DNA from: Chitinophagaceae bacterium DXS
Lineage (GTDB): Bacteria > Bacteroidota > Bacteroidia > Chitinophagales > Chitinophagaceae
DNA length: 64,000 nt
Direction of reading: 5' to 3'
NCBI GenBank assembly: GCA_030345135.1
Contig: CP128386.1
Location: 3,532,706 to 3,596,705, forward strand
Positions 8,964 to 15,139 of this stretch are shown piece after piece. Positions within the stretch are counted from its first letter, which is position 1. Each line of letters starts with the position of its first letter. The position numbers were made by a program, and so were the translations under genes. The notes under the pieces are model-generated. The model saw nothing but the letters and a program-made list of their open reading frames with translations. It was not told the DNA's origin and searched no databases.

Positions 8964-9229
8964 TTTCGCAGGTTGTTGATAGTTTACAGCATTGTTACTT
9001 AATGAAACTTACGGATCAGGCTTTATGCAGTTCTGTTAAGCAATTCCTCTTTTCTGCGGATCACAGTTAATATACCAAAAATTGTTGTTTTTGTAACTTA
9101 AAAGACTCTTAACACCTGGTACACCTGTAAATCGTGCTCATTTGCATTCAGTAATAGCCTTTTCCAATGCAAAACGGTCAGGCGGTTTTTAGTGCTATAT
9201 TTATAGCAACAATCGCAACAATAATAATT

Positions 9230-9709
9230 ATGGAACAGAAAACGCAAGTTCCCACGCTATATGACTGGGTGGGAGGACAGGCTACGCTTGAAAAGCTGAC
9301 AGAGGTTTTCTATGACAAAGTTCTAAAAGATGAGCTATTATATCCTGTTTTCAAAAACATGGCAAGCGATCACAGCAGGCATGTTGCGCATTTTATTGGA
9401 GAAGTATTTGGCGGCCCGAAGGTTTATACTGAAAATGATAATGGTACCCACGCAATAATGGTTGCACATCACCTCGGAAAGATGCTGACTGAAACACAAC
9501 GCAAAAGATGGATAGCATTGCTATTGGAAAGCGCAGATGAAATTGGTTTAGCAGACGATCCCGAATTCCGCTCTGCACTTGTAGGTTATCTTGAATGGGG
9601 AAGCCGCATTGCCGTGATCAACTCTACGACAACGGACAATCCCATTGATGAACATGCACCAATGCCCAAATGGGGCTGGGGAGAACCCGGAGGCCCTTAC
9701 CAACCATAA
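9230..9709 (+). CDS. group II truncated haemoglobin
   Basis: I choose ATG 9230. A start at 9167 would add a hydrophobic stretch not seen in globins, whereas MEQKTQVPTLYDWVGG is the usual globin N-terminus. The 159-residue product has TLYDWVGGQATLEKLTEVFYDKVL (helices A-B), a YPVF CD turn, HHLGKM with the F-region histidine, and RKRWIALLLESAD with the group II Trp at G8. Such proteins bind O2, NO or peroxide in the cytoplasm. It lies just outside the peroxidase/P450 cluster and converges with its last gene, with 15 bp between the two stops, so it is a neighbour and not a member of that operon. Confidence 0.9.
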   Translation: MEQKTQVPTLYDWVGGQATLEKLTEVFYDKVLKDELLYPVFKNMASDHSRHVAHFIGEVFGGPKVYTENDNGTHAIMVAHHLGKMLTETQRKRWIALLLESADEIGLADDPEFRSALVGYLEWGSRIAVINSTTTDNPIDEHAPMPKWGWGEPGGPYQP

Positions 9710-9724
9710 ACCGCTGTCGTGATG

Positions 9725-10177
9725 TTAGCTAGCAACAAAAGCGCTGCTTTGAGGAAAATACCTTCCCGTACAAAGCCACCTTGTTGCCATATAGATTAAA
9801 AAACCAAAGGGCCCAAGCAGGCATGTGAACACAAGCGCAGGAATAATCTTCCAATGACTAATACCGCGTTTAACTGAATCTCTTTTGATCCATACAGCCA
9901 CCAGCAGATCGAAACATAAAATATGGCACCATGCCGCAGTGACTATTGGCCTGGATGAGAAAAGCTCCATTACACCATCTAACGATGAGAACTTCTGCAT
10001 TAATTCAGTACGAAAATTAATTGCGTTAAGCGCGGTATACGAGGCCGCAATGATAACTGCAATAATGCCGCCTACTACTTTGTTATAATGCAGCCAAAAA
10101 GGACTTACGAACAGTAATATTATCCAGCCGATACCGGCGATCATTACTACCAGGTTGAAGAACTGATCAATATTCAT
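9725..10177 (-). CDS. ABA4-like small integral membrane protein
   Basis: The product has 150 residues and four hydrophobic spans, at about 6-28, 36-55, 80-97 and 110-132. The stretch AWCHILCFDLLVAVWIKRDSVKRGI followed by LLGPFGFLIYMATRWL is the signature of the ABA4-like family (formerly DUF4281), named after the plant protein needed for neoxanthin formation. Bacterial homologues have no settled function. It starts 43 bp after the stop of the DyP peroxidase gene on the same strand and is probably the last gene of that transcript. A role in membrane isoprenoid or carotenoid oxidation is only a guess from context. Confidence 0.72.
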   Translation of the reverse strand: MNIDQFFNLVVMIAGIGWIILLFVSPFWLHYNKVVGGIIAVIIAASYTALNAINFRTELMQKFSSLDGVMELFSSRPIVTAAWCHILCFDLLVAVWIKRDSVKRGISHWKIIPALVFTCLLGPFGFLIYMATRWLCTGRYFPQSSAFVAS

Positions 10178-10220
10178 CGGTTTAATTTAAGCTTGCTTGA
10201 ATAGGTAGTTTTCCCTGGTA

Positions 10221-11645
10221 CTAGATGGTGGTTAGGTAATTGATAGTTGTGATTGACGGAAAAAAGAAATACGCACCGCCCCTTACTGTTACAAAACTCT
10301 TCATGCCTGTTATATATTTATTCACAGGTTTGGCAGGTATTGTAAATGTTTGTTCTGTTCCCGGCGGGCACACTTCTCTTATTCCACTAACAGGATCAGG
10401 ATCATTGTAGAGTTGCAAAAACTTTGGATAGTTGGCCCATGTATAGGAAATAAATTCAAACTGGCGCCCAATGTCAGCGTTAAAGCAGGTGAACATCAAT
10501 CCTACTTCAGTTTCCGGCTTGTGATTGGTTGGCGAACCTGCAAAAGGTTGCCCATACAATCTTGCCCTGCGTATAATACGATGTCTCCTGGTAAGTTTGA
10601 ATGATTTCTCCACGCCATTATCCTCGAACGCATCGCGTGGATTTGTGCGGCGTATATGTGAACCAAAAGGACATTTCAGACCTTCCTTGTCAGAATCCTG
10701 GTAGGTAAAATATGCTGTATAGTAATCAACTTCTTTATTGTCACCGGCAGGATCAGCATCAGGATAAAGCGATAATGGCGCGCCGCTTGGCCAGCGTCCC
10801 ATCATCTTGCTTGCAAGCTTCACACTTTCCTGTACATTCATGCTTCCATCATCATTTTTTGTCTTTTCATTCATGAAGGTCCAGTAGCCGTCCACATCTT
10901 CCTGCAGTTGACGCATAACCATGTAGGAGCCATTGCGGCCAATGTCTTTTTTACCTGTGCCCATCGGATCATAGGGCAGGTCGGACATGTTACCCTGATC
11001 CTTTGTAAGAATGGGCGTATCAGGAAAGACATTGTATTCATTTTTATACCCCATAATAAACTCACCCGCATTCACATAATCCTGCTCAGGCCCCTTGCGG
11101 TCGCTGCCTTTAATAAGCGGCTGGGATATACCGTCCCTGAATCCAAAATGTTCTTTATTAAAAGGAAGCGTTTGACCATCCAGTTCAAAAACATTTTTGA
11201 GGCCTGCAGCAAGAAACTGTTGTTCAAGCTGTTTGTAATAATTGATTGCAGTGGCTTCATCAGCGCCAAACACCATTAACAGGATGTGCGCTTCTTCATT
11301 ATTGGGACCACCCCAGCGCCATTTTTCAGGAGCACTGCTATCGTAGTCTGCCAGAATGCGCTGCCGGTGTGGTGTAGTCATTCCTTCATAAAATTCCCTG
11401 CGAAAATTGCTCAGGTTCTCTTCATTCATACCTAACGCCCGCAACCCTTGTGCCGTAAAGGCTATGTTGAGGCAATTGCTTTTGGGAAAATGGGTAACAT
11501 TGGTTATGCTACCACTAATATCTTTTAAAAAGGTTTTGGCAGCCGCAGCATCTGTTACATGCAGCATAACATAACGCGAATACATCATGTGCTTATAGCC
11601 TCTTACTATATAACCCTGGATATCTGCTTCTTCAAGTTTTTCCAT
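10221..11645 (-). CDS. DyP-type haem peroxidase
   Basis: The protein is 474 residues. It carries the diagnostic distal motif GFRDG (residues 168-172, catalytic Asp171 in HFGFRDGISQP), the conserved NGSYMVMRQLQEDVDGYW (about 238-255), and the proximal haem ligand in CPFGSHIRRTNPRDAF (His330). DyP peroxidases use H2O2 to oxidise dyes, phenolics, Mn2+ or unknown physiological partners. There is no signal peptide, so the enzyme is probably cytoplasmic or attached from the inside. The length and the extended insert around residues 190-300 fit the larger class of DyPs (C/D-like) rather than EfeB. It lies 53 bp after the unknown membrane protein and 43 bp before the ABA4-like gene, in one strand-consistent cluster with the GST-P450 fusion. 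Confidence 0.93.
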   Translation of the reverse strand: MEKLEEADIQGYIVRGYKHMMYSRYVMLHVTDAAAAKTFLKDISGSITNVTHFPKSNCLNIAFTAQGLRALGMNEENLSNFRREFYEGMTTPHRQRILADYDSSAPEKWRWGGPNNEEAHILLMVFGADEATAINYYKQLEQQFLAAGLKNVFELDGQTLPFNKEHFGFRDGISQPLIKGSDRKGPEQDYVNAGEFIMGYKNEYNVFPDTPILTKDQGNMSDLPYDPMGTGKKDIGRNGSYMVMRQLQEDVDGYWTFMNEKTKNDDGSMNVQESVKLASKMMGRWPSGAPLSLYPDADPAGDNKEVDYYTAYFTYQDSDKEGLKCPFGSHIRRTNPRDAFEDNGVEKSFKLTRRHRIIRRARLYGQPFAGSPTNHKPETEVGLMFTCFNADIGRQFEFISYTWANYPKFLQLYNDPDPVSGIREVCPPGTEQTFTIPAKPVNKYITGMKSFVTVRGGAYFFFPSITTINYLTTI

Positions 11646-11698
11646 AAAATGAAGTTGATTTTTTATTGTACTGGTTTCAGTTGTGTTGAAGCATTTAA

Positions 11699-12958
11699 TT
11701 AAAAGCGGTTTAAGAAACGTTGCGCTTCCGCTTCAGTAGTGTTCAGCATAAGTTCATTCCTGATATAGGTATTGTTCATTACATTCTTAATAGAAAGATT
11801 GGGATAAGCACAGTACCACACAGCGGTTGGTATTTGATAATAGCGGCTCCATGCAAGAAAATGTTCTTCGTCATACGCGCCGCCTGTAAACAGAAACCGG
11901 GTTGGCGGAAAGTTTACCGTATTGCTCCAGATGCCTGTTAATCCCCAACCGGACTTGTCTATAAAATCTCCGAGATACTGTTGCCAGCTTCCATCAAAAT
12001 TGCTGAAGAAAAGCATACGCTTTTGATCATCCATCAACAACCACCGTGCGAAATGGATTGTTGGAATACCCATCAGCTTACCTTTTACAAACAGGTTTTT
12101 AACAAGCGACTTTGCAAACAACATTAAGCCCATCAACGTTATAAGCCGTATTTGCCCGGGCTTCATAATAAGAAGTTGTGTAAACTGGTTCTGATTATGA
12201 AAATCTTCATATTCTTCCAGCTTGCGGATATGTGCGCCATCTATCTGGCTGGAGGTAAGTCCCAGCGCTTTATCCTTGCGCTCATACAGAAAATGAATGA
12301 CCAGTATCCATATAATAATAAACGGCAAAAGCACCAGCAGAATAAGCCCCAGCAATGCCATGCCAAGCCAGTTTTCCTTTGGCAGCTTTACACTCTCCCG
12401 CGCCCATTGAAACTCGGTTTTCGAAAGAACATCTGTTTTTATTGCGGCATGAATTTCTTTTGCAGATTGACTGCCCCATTTGCCGTTGCGAATTAAATTA
12501 AGGATGTATTCCCGTAGTTCGTTTTCCTTGCGGATCTGGACTAATGTACGTCCGGGGGCACCGGCAAAAAATGCTGACGCCTTTACGCGCCATTTTTCCA
12601 GGTATGCTTTTCTTGTTGCAGGATTTCTGTTAGCAGCATCAGGATAACCTTCGCAATTTTCATATAGCTTATCAATAAAATCACCGCAAGTAGTAGCAAG
12701 CGCTGTTAGCTGAGCATCTTCATCCCCATCGTAATCCGTACCCAACACGAATTTTGCGGGATAGCTGTTTCCTGATTCATCAGGCGGCTGGGCTTCCAGC
12801 AAAACAAGTCGCAGATAATGTATCGTGTCAACATTCTGAAAGGATTGCTGCACGCCGTTATCCAATCCCGATCTTATTTGCTTTAAAACTGTATCCAGGT
12901 TGTTGTAGGCCGAAGGAATTACTGGCGTAGCCAGTGTAAGCGGTTGTTGGCGAACCAT
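11699..12958 (-). CDS. unrecognised membrane protein with an internal duplication, between P450 and DyP genes
   Basis: I do not recognise a named family. The 419 residues contain one strong membrane segment at about 197-225 and a weaker hydrophobic stretch at about 270-290. The two soluble arms resemble each other. Residues 45-97 contain TIHYLRLVLLEA and later VLGTDYDGD...CGDFIDKLY. Residues 300-335 contain TIHFARWLLMDDQKRMLFFS followed by NFDGSW...LGDFIDK. The shared pattern (TIHxxR, then a strand ending in DYDG/NFDG, then a helix with DFID) suggests two copies of one alpha/beta ferredoxin-like unit flanking a membrane hairpin. It has no haem motif. Its place between the GST-P450 and DyP genes (69 and 53 bp gaps) argues for a shared role, perhaps a membrane scaffold; that is inference. 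Confidence 0.75.
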   Translation of the reverse strand: MVRQQPLTLATPVIPSAYNNLDTVLKQIRSGLDNGVQQSFQNVDTIHYLRLVLLEAQPPDESGNSYPAKFVLGTDYDGDEDAQLTALATTCGDFIDKLYENCEGYPDAANRNPATRKAYLEKWRVKASAFFAGAPGRTLVQIRKENELREYILNLIRNGKWGSQSAKEIHAAIKTDVLSKTEFQWARESVKLPKENWLGMALLGLILLVLLPFIIIWILVIHFLYERKDKALGLTSSQIDGAHIRKLEEYEDFHNQNQFTQLLIMKPGQIRLITLMGLMLFAKSLVKNLFVKGKLMGIPTIHFARWLLMDDQKRMLFFSNFDGSWQQYLGDFIDKSGWGLTGIWSNTVNFPPTRFLFTGGAYDEEHFLAWSRYYQIPTAVWYCAYPNLSIKNVMNNTYIRNELMLNTTEAEAQRFLNRF

Positions 12959-13027
12959 GATATAATTGTTTACTGATTGTTTAGAAGGAACAGAAGGGTA
13001 TACTTATAAAATGCGTTTACGAACGCC

Positions 13028-15139
13028 TTATTCATCGTCATCACTACCATCAAACGCCACAACAAAATTTGTAGGAAAAGGCCCCTGTTGTAAACCGGTC
13101 CTCATGCCCGCACGCCCGTCACCTCTTCTAACGTTCTTTAATCTTAAAACTGAAGCTACTAATTCAGAGATAGTGACAGCGTTAATGTATTTGCCATAGC
13201 ACTCGTGCAAACCATAACCGTAGTTCATGTACACGGACGTTCTTTCCGGGTCAAATTTTTTGGGTTCGGGAAATGCAGCAGGATCGAACATGGCAGCAGC
13301 CGTTAACGCAAACACCTTTGTTTTGGCAGGGATGGTGTATGCCTTGTTTCCTTTGCCCCTGAGCTCCTGCTTTGTTTCTGAATAGCGTATAACACCGGGC
13401 TGTGCAGGATTAAAACGCAGCGCTTCGGAAACGTAACCATACATTTTCTTCATGTCCTTTGCGCGGGCTACTTCTTCTGCTCCCGGTAAAACGTCGGGAC
13501 GGTTCAGCAGCTCATCCAGCACCAGCACAACAGCCTTATTTGTTGTTTCCAGAATACCTGTCAACAAGCCGCCAACGTTACGCTGCAATGTATCATCATC
13601 AAACCACTCGTTACCCGGTTGCTGCTGCATTAACAGCAGGCGGTTAAGAATATTATCGTCAAGTGTTTTTCCGTCTTTCAGCATTTGCTTGCGATCCTCA
13701 ATCAGTTCCAGAATCCAGTCACGGCGCTGCAATGCTGCATCTACAGCAAGCTTGTGCTTGGCTGCATTACCCGTAAAATTGAGAAAGAGATCATAGAATA
13801 GTGCGCGGTGCCAAAGCTTCATTTTTTCTAAGGTTGGCGCCGGTACACCAAAATAAAAATCCAGCAGTTTAACCAGTACGGGATAGTTTAATGTATTTGG
13901 CACATCTATCCTTCCATAATCTTTTACGTTTGCGATTATTTCGTCAGCGGCATTTCTTACAAATCCTCTTATCAGTTCAAGATCATCTTTTTTTGTTGCT
14001 GCTCTTACAAAATTCCGTTCGCGATCAAACTGCGGGTTATCTCTATCCCAGCCAAGAAAAAACGCGCCGCGTTGATCGGCCATTTTTTTTGAGTTGATTT
14101 CCTCTACCGTAAAGTCAAGATCACGTTCCAGCAATTCTGTAACAAGATCATTCCTGTTTACAGTCATCAATTTCAACGGACCAAGCTTTAGAACGGGATA
14201 TTTTTTTTGCAGGAAATAAAAGAGATTGGCTTTACTAATGTTCATGGATAGTTTCAGCCTGTCAACAATTGTTGCAAGCAGACCGGGCTCTTTCGGCATA
14301 TCAGAAGGCAGACGCTTTGGCGGGCGGTCTTCCTGGTAAAGACGAAGCACAAACTGTCCTGCAGCGGTAGCTCTTAATTCATCTATTACAAGCCTGTAAG
14401 CATCCGGCACCTGGTTTATTTTAGGTGTAACACTGCCGCATTCTTCAGGCAATATTAATGGAGAAGAAATGGATGCAAAAGCAATATCAGCTAACGTAGG
14501 TGTATCGCCTGTAAGATATTTTCTGCCATCGGCCAGTAGTCCATTCACCCGGGCGAATGTTTTACGGATAAAGTCAAGTAACTGATCAGAGGAGCAACCA
14601 GACAGGTTATGATCACTCTTTAAAGCGGCGGAGATAGATCCGAATTTAAAACTATAATTCAGCCTTTCACCAATGGGTACATGGCGCGTGAATACAGCTT
14701 TTGCAAATGAGGCATTTGGCAGCATTTGCAGATAAACATATTTAGTTACAGCTTCTTCGTATTCGCCATTAAAAAGGTTATAAAGATCCAACACCTCTTT
14801 CTTCCTGCCTGTTTCAGCCGGAACCATTTTTTTCGAGCTCAGGCAATTCTGCTCGCAGTATTGTACAACGCTGTTGGTAGTATAAATAAGGCCATCATTC
14901 ATCACTAAAACGGGATTGTTCCGTATGCCGTTATTATCAGTAAGTTTTTGTATTACCTTCTTATACAATCCTGGCGCATGCACCTCGTCTTTGTAAGGTA
15001 TTCCGTTAAGATCCAGTATCCAGCGGGCTATTTCGTCCGTTCCCCCAATACTATTGCTTACAAATGTGGGAAATGTCTTGGAATAGTTGAATGACTTCCT
15101 GAAATAGATTTGATCAGGATCGTTGTATGGGTTAGTCAT
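13028..15139 (-). CDS. fusion of a glutathione S-transferase-like domain and a cytochrome P450
   Basis: A single 703-residue frame holds two modules. Residues about 24-100 look like a thioredoxin-fold GST N-domain (NNPVLVMNDGLIYTTNSVVQYCEQ), and 110-270 like a helical GST C-domain with the N-capping motif TPTLADIAFA (213-222). Residues about 290-700 are a P450. The acid-alcohol pair is E531-T532 in the I helix (TGILETTNKA), the ExxR pair is E572/R575 (SEALR), a PERF-like FDPERTS follows, and the haem loop is NYGYGLHECYGK with ligand Cys647. No reductase or ferredoxin domain is attached or adjacent, so electrons may come from peroxide or from unlinked partners. It is the first gene of a minus-strand cluster with the unknown membrane protein and DyP peroxidase. 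The substrate is unknown. Confidence 0.9.
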   Translation of the reverse strand: MTNPYNDPDQIYFRKSFNYSKTFPTFVSNSIGGTDEIARWILDLNGIPYKDEVHAPGLYKKVIQKLTDNNGIRNNPVLVMNDGLIYTTNSVVQYCEQNCLSSKKMVPAETGRKKEVLDLYNLFNGEYEEAVTKYVYLQMLPNASFAKAVFTRHVPIGERLNYSFKFGSISAALKSDHNLSGCSSDQLLDFIRKTFARVNGLLADGRKYLTGDTPTLADIAFASISSPLILPEECGSVTPKINQVPDAYRLVIDELRATAAGQFVLRLYQEDRPPKRLPSDMPKEPGLLATIVDRLKLSMNISKANLFYFLQKKYPVLKLGPLKLMTVNRNDLVTELLERDLDFTVEEINSKKMADQRGAFFLGWDRDNPQFDRERNFVRAATKKDDLELIRGFVRNAADEIIANVKDYGRIDVPNTLNYPVLVKLLDFYFGVPAPTLEKMKLWHRALFYDLFLNFTGNAAKHKLAVDAALQRRDWILELIEDRKQMLKDGKTLDDNILNRLLLMQQQPGNEWFDDDTLQRNVGGLLTGILETTNKAVVLVLDELLNRPDVLPGAEEVARAKDMKKMYGYVSEALRFNPAQPGVIRYSETKQELRGKGNKAYTIPAKTKVFALTAAAMFDPAAFPEPKKFDPERTSVYMNYGYGLHECYGKYINAVTISELVASVLRLKNVRRGDGRAGMRTGLQQGPFPTNFVVAFDGSDDDE

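What the first reader, a model, noticed from the sequence alone, without database searches (positions are those of the whole stretch)
9725..15139. GST-P450 fusion, duplicated membrane protein, DyP peroxidase and ABA4-like protein in one compact unit
Four minus-strand genes with gaps of 69, 53 and 43 bp look like an operon that joins two haem enzymes. The P450 keeps Cys647, ExxR (572/575) and E531-T532, and carries a GST-like N-terminus; no ferredoxin or reductase lies nearby. DyP keeps Asp171 and His330. A GST-P450 fusion beside a DyP and a membrane protein is not a textbook system. Inference: a membrane-linked, perhaps peroxide-driven, lipid or xenobiotic oxidation pathway in which GST handles the reactive product and ABA4-like acts on a membrane isoprenoid.
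Basis: partly seen in the sequence, partly recalled or inferred. Interest (0 to 1): 0.8.

Follow-up and report, generated by a model that had tools for sequence, protein, structure and literature searches.

The report
Bacterial two-haem lipid-oxidation machine
A cytochrome P450, a peroxidase and a duplicated protein with a predicted membrane anchor stay together in distant bacteria, in some even as one fused protein, so they likely work as a single machine, predicted to process oxidised membrane lipids.

Summary
The four genes are there as described, and they belong to a larger assembly that I found undescribed. Fifty-four titled genomic loci were found by the 419-residue protein alone. In 52 a DyP gene follows directly; the other two run off the contig. 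Six of 394 genomes of the window's family have this P450, and all six keep it beside that pair. On three alphaproteobacterial plasmids the P450, the 419-type protein and the DyP form one open reading frame, in the order of the window's genes. The 419-residue protein is a true duplication, predicted to be a tandem ABM-fold barrel with a hydrophobic helix between its halves. In 31 of the 54 loci a catalase-like protein is present instead of a P450, in none together with one; the slot switched at least four times on the tree. Patatin-type lipases recur nearby. Best reading: a membrane-attached two-haem complex acting on lipid hydroperoxides. The assembly is shown; the substrate is inferred. A carotenoid role for ABA4 is weakened: no PF00494 match.

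The parts
13028..15139 (-). GST-P450 fusion, 703 aa: first gene of the unit
   Evidence: ORF; PF00067 71 bits and sub-threshold GST matches; aligned with 32 relatives; model pLDDT 82.8, pTM 0.83
14285..15139 (-). GST-like N-terminal part, residues 1-285
   Evidence: GST_N/GST_C matches under cut-off; P76 in 33 of 33 rows, S90 in 31 of 33
13031..14284 (-). P450 part, residues 286-703
13199..13201 (-). Cys647 codon, haem thiolate ligand in YGYGLHECYG
   Evidence: invariant in 33 of 33 and in 18 of 18 P450s with a letter there, of 20 rows
11699..12958 (-). 419-residue tandem-repeat protein, the constant core member (DUP419)
12281..12373 (-). hydrophobic helix of DUP419, residues 196-226
   Evidence: longest hydrophobic run; 58 of 68 sequences, window included, have a run of 25 or more residues; helix 197-228 in the model
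10221..11645 (-). DyP-type peroxidase, 474 aa
   Evidence: D171 and H330 conserved
9725..10177 (-). ABA4-like membrane protein, 150 aa
   Evidence: PF14108 91.9 bits against 27; five TM-like hydropathy peaks, two of them overlapping; beside 6 of 10 GST-P450 loci and 0 of the 44 other loci

Best explanation
The four closely spaced genes encode the GST-fused form of a three-part assembly (P450, a duplicated protein with a hydrophobic helix, DyP peroxidase) that some Alphaproteobacteria carry as one fused polypeptide, and it likely works as a membrane-attached two-haem complex predicted to convert fatty-acyl hydroperoxides. Shown: the duplicated protein and the DyP are neighbours in 52 of 54 loci; the P450 stays with them through several gene orders; three plasmids fuse all three; in other genomes a catalase-like protein fills the P450's slot. 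Inferred: the duplicated protein is predicted to fold as a pseudo-dimer of ABM (dimeric alpha-beta barrel) units. Its hydrophobic helix would hold the complex at the membrane, and the barrel would hold or pass on the lipid between the two haem centres. The DyP would use or generate the peroxide, and the P450 (or the catalase-like protein) would rearrange or hydroxylate the resulting lipid hydroperoxide. Patatin-type lipases found beside many relatives would supply the acyl chain. In the window's version the GST-like domain and the ABA4-like protein, which go together, likely handle an epoxide-type product.
For: (1) The 54 loci were chosen by DUP419 patterns alone, and DyP follows directly on the same strand in 52 (in L014 as two ORF pieces); L011 and L043 end at the contig edge. 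(2) 6 of 394 genomes of the window's family, its own included, have the P450 at E<=1e-60, and all 6 have DUP419-DyP beside it, two of them with an unfused 400-aa P450. (3) Single ORFs P450-DUP-DyP: Sulfitobacter pontiacus 1620 aa, Pararhizobium qamdonense 1423 aa, Novosphingobium aromaticivorans 1443 aa; Skermanella rosea has the three as overlapping genes. (4) The association survives different orders: P450-DUP-DyP, DUP-DyP-P450, divergent P450. (5) The catalase-like protein is in 31 of 54 loci, a P450 in 12, both in none, Fisher p 3.9e-6; at least 4 switches on the DUP+DyP tree, with the window's clade beside catalase-bearing loci. Both P450s (CYP74) and catalase-related proteins are reported to convert fatty-acid hydroperoxides (PMC5617202, passages). 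(6) Patatin-type proteins in 23 of 54 loci, two of them GST-P450 loci; thioesterase plus patatin in Sphingomonas; a PF10604 domain on the catalase-like protein of L025. (7) P450BioI with fatty-acyl-ACP heads the structural list, though tied with others.
Against: No enzyme that makes lipid hydroperoxides was identified: the lipoxygenase search was empty, but its control rang nowhere. The window's P450 keeps the oxygen-activating pair E531-T532, and on a Methylorubrum plasmid ferredoxin, reductase and a distant P450 (25% identity to the window's) stand beside catalase-like, single-repeat DUP and DyP genes, so an ordinary O2-driven monooxygenase is possible and P450 and catalase-like proteins can coexist. 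No patatin or cyclase is among the window's five scanned neighbours. Best structural kin of DUP419 are polyketide ABM proteins, not lipid enzymes. A single hydrophobic helix between two halves predicted to pack together leaves its topology unclear. The exclusivity test ignores shared ancestry and cut contigs. The conserved lipid-type neighbours are mostly in catalase-bearing loci. Nothing here shows transcription, complex formation, haem content or activity.
Confidence: 0.45

Rival explanations
1. A detoxification unit: the complex removes lipid peroxides or xenobiotic oxidation products instead of making a defined lipid product; the GST domain conjugates or reduces them.
For: DyP, catalase-like and GST-like parts are all families of peroxide or electrophile handlers (recalled); no biosynthetic acceptor genes are among the window's scanned neighbours. 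PMC12140327 (search listing with start of abstract only) mentions DyP encapsulins in oxidative stress resistance.
Against: A P450 is an odd scavenger; the patatin, thioesterase and PF10604-domain company of relatives and repeated three-domain fusion point to a directed reaction. No glutathione synthetase PF02955 match in the genome, though one GCS2 protein is there.
Confidence: 0.25
2. An ordinary ferredoxin-driven P450 tailoring step on a polyketide-like or aromatic metabolite, with the tandem ABM protein as a chaperone-like fidelity factor and the DyP as a coupling peroxidase.
For: The DUP419 model is closest to WhiE-ORFI and the polyketide decarboxylase Abx(+)O; ABM proteins can act as ancillary chaperone-like proteins (PMC6689052, passages); E531-T532 kept; Fer2 matches elsewhere in the genome; ferredoxin, reductase and P450 beside DyP in Methylorubrum.
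Against: No polyketide synthase among the window's five scanned neighbours; in 31 of 54 loci a catalase-like protein is present and no P450; the acid is replaced by Pro in five P450s outside Bacteroidota.
Confidence: 0.18
3. Part of an immune or signalling system: patatin effectors, nucleotide cyclases and TIR/STAND genes nearby suggest an anti-phage role in which the haem enzymes attack membranes.
For: Cyclase-type proteins in 35 of 54 loci and patatin-type in 23; SIR2-TIR plus nSTAND1 genes in L010; patatins, the kinase-cyclase and the SIR2-TIR protein of the relatives match PADLOC models; cyclase gene before the Pararhizobium fusion.
Against: The four window proteins match no PADLOC model at E<=0.01; the window's five scanned neighbours carry none of these; no cyclase in the 12 P450 loci.
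Confidence: 0.07
4. Chance adjacency of unrelated housekeeping genes.
For: The unit is rare in the phylum: the 419-residue gene was found in 1 of 247 sampled genomes, the window's own.
Against: 52 of 54 DUP-DyP pairs, 6 of 6 P450 genomes and three natural fusions.
Confidence: 0.01

Closest known systems
Fungal dioxygenase-P450 fusions (linoleate diol, allene oxide and epoxy alcohol synthases)
   Same: Two haem domains in one polypeptide, a peroxidase-type haem protein plus a P450; in the passages read, the P450 is self-sufficient and takes the hydroperoxide (PMC13049297, passages). The window's Cys loop has HEC, which that paper names for 9-AOS.
   Different: The peroxidase here is a DyP, not a peroxidase-COX protein; a tandem ABM-fold protein sits between; the P450's best-scoring solved kin are bacterial P450s.
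Coral catalase-related allene oxide synthase / hydroperoxide lyase fused to lipoxygenase
   Same: A catalase-related haem protein linked to a lipid peroxide system (PMC5617202, passages); a catalase-like protein fills the P450 slot in relatives of this unit.
   Different: No lipoxygenase match in the proteins scanned; the window itself has a P450, and its genome gave no match to a catalase-like query (no positive control).
ABM-superfamily proteins, WhiE-ORFI type
   Different: 12% identity, no ABM Pfam match, extra hydrophobic helix, DyP neighbour in 52 of 54 loci.
Encapsulin-cargo and EfeB DyP peroxidases
   Same: DyP family, GxxDG Asp and His330.
   Different: TIGR01412 23.9 bits against 428; the partners are the DUP419 protein and a P450 or catalase-like protein. 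Encapsulin genes were not searched for.
ABA4 (PF14108), plant neoxanthin synthesis
   Same: Pfam family membership.
   Different: No phytoene/squalene synthase family match in the genome, so a carotenoid substrate is unlikely.

Membership tests
Cytochrome P450 | Cys haem ligand and ExxR | tested here: met
   C647, E572, R575 invariant in 33 of 33; PF00067 over cut-off
Cytochrome P450 monooxygenase (O2-activating) | acid-alcohol pair in the I helix | tested here: met
   E531-T532 in the window; T532 in 33 of 33 and E531 in at least 90% of A2. Exceptions in the family: L038 Ser for the acid, L040 Gly for the alcohol, L066/L067 Asn for the alcohol, five P450s outside Bacteroidota Pro for the acid
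Cytochrome P450 monooxygenase (O2-activating) | dedicated redox partner | tested here: inconclusive
   none among five scanned neighbours; six Fer2 matches elsewhere in the genome
DyP peroxidase | DyP profile, GxxDG Asp and conserved His | tested here: met
   TIGR01413 103.9 against 100.5; D171, H330
DyP peroxidase | distal Arg | not tested
   not singled out
DyP peroxidase | peroxidase activity with bound haem | not testable with these tools
   needs purified protein
Glutathione S-transferase | GST N and C domains over curated cut-off | tested here: inconclusive
   all below cut-off in the window; many listed relatives carry precomputed PF13410 or PF00043; P76 33 of 33, S90 31 of 33
Glutathione S-transferase | glutathione available in the host | tested here: inconclusive
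   no PF02955 or PF04262, one PF04107 protein
ABA4-like (PF14108) | profile match | tested here: met
   91.9 bits against 27
ABA4 as a carotenoid (neoxanthin) enzyme | host makes carotenoids through a PF00494 synthase | tested here: not met
   no match in the 7.29-Mb single-contig genome, 7 of 14 controls rang
ABM superfamily (WhiE-ORFI type) | dimeric alpha-beta barrel fold | tested here: met
ABM superfamily (WhiE-ORFI type) | ABM sequence profile | tested here: not met
   no ABM family at E<=0.1
Fungal dioxygenase-P450 fusions | peroxidase-COX type dioxygenase domain | tested here: not met
   the partner is a DyP; no An_peroxidase match among the Pfam results
Fungal dioxygenase-P450 fusions | isomerises a fatty-acid hydroperoxide without redox partner | not testable with these tools
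   needs enzyme assay
EfeB iron-transport DyP | TIGR01412 equivalog match | tested here: not met
   23.9 bits against 428

The most novel reading that the evidence does not exclude
An undescribed class of bacterial oxylipin-type synthase: a tandem ABM barrel anchored in the membrane carries two haem enzymes, a DyP that loads oxygen as peroxide onto an acyl chain and a swappable head (GST-P450, plain P450 or catalase-like) that turns the hydroperoxide into an epoxide, diol or allene oxide. It would be a bacterial invention parallel to the fungal dioxygenase-P450 and coral catalase-lipoxygenase fusions.
Probability: 0.3. Interest if true: 0.85.

Novelty: new variant of a known kind. Interest (0 to 1): 0.62.

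Why it matters
If right, bacteria have their own multi-haem lipid-oxidation complex, built from families not known to me to work together, with an interchangeable catalytic head. The three-domain fusions give single proteins on which the idea can be tested directly. The duplicated protein belongs to a family of more than a thousand sequences (1441 matches among 7998 scored candidates) for which I found no Pfam or NCBIfam name, and would gain a function. It would also give DyP peroxidases, whose natural substrates are mostly open (recalled), a defined partner.

Tried and rejected
Chance neighbourhood: rejected. Carotenoid substrate for ABA4: weakened. Anti-phage filing: the four window proteins match no PADLOC model, although some neighbours of relatives do. 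Lipoxygenase partner in the genome: empty, but its control rang nowhere, so it says nothing. Catalase-like protein elsewhere in the genome: empty, without a positive control. Phage carriage: no match for the 419-residue protein in the phage collection. A Bacteroidota-type promoter before 15139: no match to the pattern I used (recalled consensus) in about 200 bp; sigma-70-like and terminator-like counts are near the shuffles, 17 against 17.2 and 10 against 7.6 with sd 3.3. That other folds do not appear in the structure lists is not taken as evidence. Phylum and order surveys gave 1 of 247 genomes (DUP419) and 2 of 396 (P450), too few for statistics, so the titled loci were used. Literature: searches, in an open-access library only, listed no title or abstract start on a P450-DyP fusion or on this cluster; papers not opened were judged by listing alone; of three papers opened only passages were seen.
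Full report
What is there. The 703-residue protein is a P450 with a GST-like N-terminus; GST matches fall under the curated cut-offs in this copy, but many of its listed relatives carry precomputed GST families. The 474-residue protein is a DyP. The 150-residue protein is ABA4-like. The 419-residue protein, called DUP419 here, matches no Pfam family over cut-off and no NCBIfam family. The genome is one 7.29-Mb contig without a name; named homologues are of Ferruginibacter, Puia, Segetibacter and the like, so the host is likely in the Chitinophagaceae.

Neighbourhood. Fifty-four titled loci were found by two short DUP419 patterns only, so their neighbours were not selected; DUP proteins without those patterns are missed. 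DyP follows directly in 52 of 54; L011 and L043 end at the contig edge; in L014 the DyP is in two ORF pieces. The GST-P450 is present in 10 (L002, L003, L027, L028, L029, L036, L038, L040, L041, L050) and an unfused P450 in L052 and L055. ABA4-like is present in 6 of these 10 and in none of the other 44; Fisher p 8.1e-6. L029 and L036 end inside the P450, while L038 and L041 have no ABA4 match within the fetched stretch. The reverse test: 6 of 394 genomes of the window's family have the P450 at E<=1e-60, and all 6, the window's own included, have DUP419 and DyP beside it; three of the six appear to be the same contigs as L002, L027 and L041 (equal contig lengths), and two (G551, G659) carry an unfused 400-aa P450. 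The unit is rare: 1 of 247 genomes of the phylum sample and 2 of 396 of the order sample for the P450. The window's genome has a single PF00067 match.

Fusions. A plasmid search with an acidobacterial DUP (L054) found 27 records, most of them alphaproteobacterial. Three of those opened encode P450, DUP and DyP in one uninterrupted ORF: Sulfitobacter pontiacus (1620 aa; P450 43-434, DUP 534-933, DyP 941-1620 with an unmatched stretch inside), Pararhizobium qamdonense (1423 aa; 36-434, 437-901, 920-1414) and Novosphingobium aromaticivorans (1443 aa; 47-405, 446-925, 933-1443). The order equals that of the window's genes. Skermanella rosea has DUP, DyP and P450 as overlapping genes. Two Rhizobium records opened have DUP and DyP in one ORF without a P450 match: R. 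ruizarguesonis, whose DyP part is incomplete by this comparison, and R. sophoriradicis, by position of the matches. Natural fusion of all three is the strongest sign that they act as one unit.

The swappable slot. A catalase-like protein occurs in 31 of 54 loci; none of these has a P450 (Fisher p 3.9e-6, not corrected for ancestry or for cut contigs). Twenty-three of the 31 are 518-541 aa, seven 337-370 aa, one is a 114-aa stretch; of two scanned, the long one (L025) has a C-terminal PF10604 domain and no catalase match, the short one (L010) a PF00199 match below cut-off, 22 against 25. They fall in one similarity cluster. A His segment like that of L010 is found in 25 of 31 and an RxxxY segment in 26 of 31 (that these are catalase's distal and haem-ligand motifs is recalled). 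The Acinetobacter relative is over the PF00199 cut-off (34.9); the best solved relative of the L010 protein is 3e4w, E 1.5e-5. On a DUP419+DyP tree of 66 rows (quick method, several long branches), P450 versus catalase-like needs at least 4 changes and the GST fusion 3; the window's clade (with L002 and L003) is sister to L008 and catalase-bearing L005 and L006 at support 93. One plasmid, Methylorubrum populi, carries catalase-like, single-repeat DUP, DyP and a distant P450 with ferredoxin and reductase genes, so exclusion is not absolute.

Company. Patatin-type proteins occur in 23 of 54 loci, two of them with GST-P450 (L038, L040); cyclase-type proteins in 35, none with P450 (clusters named from scanned representatives). 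A cyclase-TPR gene precedes the Pararhizobium fusion. Sphingomonas naphthae has catalase-like, single-repeat DUP, DyP, thioesterase and patatin genes in a row. None of these is among the window's five scanned neighbours.

Mechanism. Shown: conserved adjacency, fusion, duplication, conserved haem-site residues, slot exchange. Predicted: ABM barrel fold and membrane attachment. Inferred: lipid hydroperoxide chemistry. The argument is that both P450s (CYP74) and catalase-related proteins are reported to convert fatty-acid hydroperoxides (PMC5617202, passages), that they alternate here, and that lipases recur. In five P450s outside Bacteroidota (three fused, Skermanella, Silvibacterium) the acid of the oxygen-activating pair is Pro, which fits peroxide use; the window's P450 keeps Glu-Thr, which leaves O2-driven chemistry open. 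Within the GST-fused form L038 and L040 each lack one of the two residues. The fungal dioxygenase-P450 proteins (PMC13049297, passages) are what this would work like, but membership fails because the peroxidase part is a DyP.

ABA4 and GST. Both go with the fused P450 form. PF00494 has no match in the genome with 7 of 14 controls ringing, which speaks against a carotenoid substrate. PF02955 and PF04262 have no match and one PF04107 protein is present, so glutathione use is open. That ABA4 in plants is needed for an epoxide-to-allene step is recalled; a role in handling an epoxide product here is inference.

Limits. No expression, binding or activity data. L028 is titled Glaciecola amylolytica and L050 Gemmataceae, but both sit among Bacteroidota in the tree, so their labels or origin need checking. 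I found no report of this assembly in the searches listed under Tried and rejected, which cover open-access papers only.

Noticed in passing
window 9167-9709 (+): Bacterial-like globin gene (PF01152, 56 bits), convergent with the unit, 15 bp from the ABA4-like stop; no relative of it was found in the other loci at E<=1e-5.
   Followed up: partly
window 13013-13026: Small hairpin right after the P450 stop, before the 419-residue gene; could tune expression, but such hairpins are hardly more frequent than in shuffles.
   Followed up: no
L010:15796-20589; similar gene order in L012 and L014: SIR2-TIR protein, nSTAND1 protein and a patatin that matches PADLOC phospholipase effectors lie beside the catalase-like gene in L010: a defence-like neighbourhood.
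   Followed up: partly
L010:4715-9778 and 26 further loci: A 1700-residue kinase-AAA-GAF-cyclase type protein recurs beside the DUP-DyP pair, suggesting cyclic-nucleotide control.
   Followed up: partly
L074 (Acinetobacter lwoffii pALWED3.4): A 12.4-kb plasmid carries single-repeat DUP, DyP, a catalase family protein and a 3-hydroxyacyl-CoA dehydrogenase in a row.
   Followed up: partly
L014:11276-12500: The DyP here is read as two ORF pieces (82 and 338 aa), so it may be broken or carry a sequence error.
   Followed up: no
L050:6219-11541: ORFs beside the Gemmataceae-titled copy resemble type III CRISPR subunits by eye (recalled, not tested); the contig may be misbinned.
   Followed up: no
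L028: Record titled Glaciecola amylolytica carries a Bacteroidota-like DUP-DyP-P450-ABA4 set; transfer or a mislabelled record.
   Followed up: no
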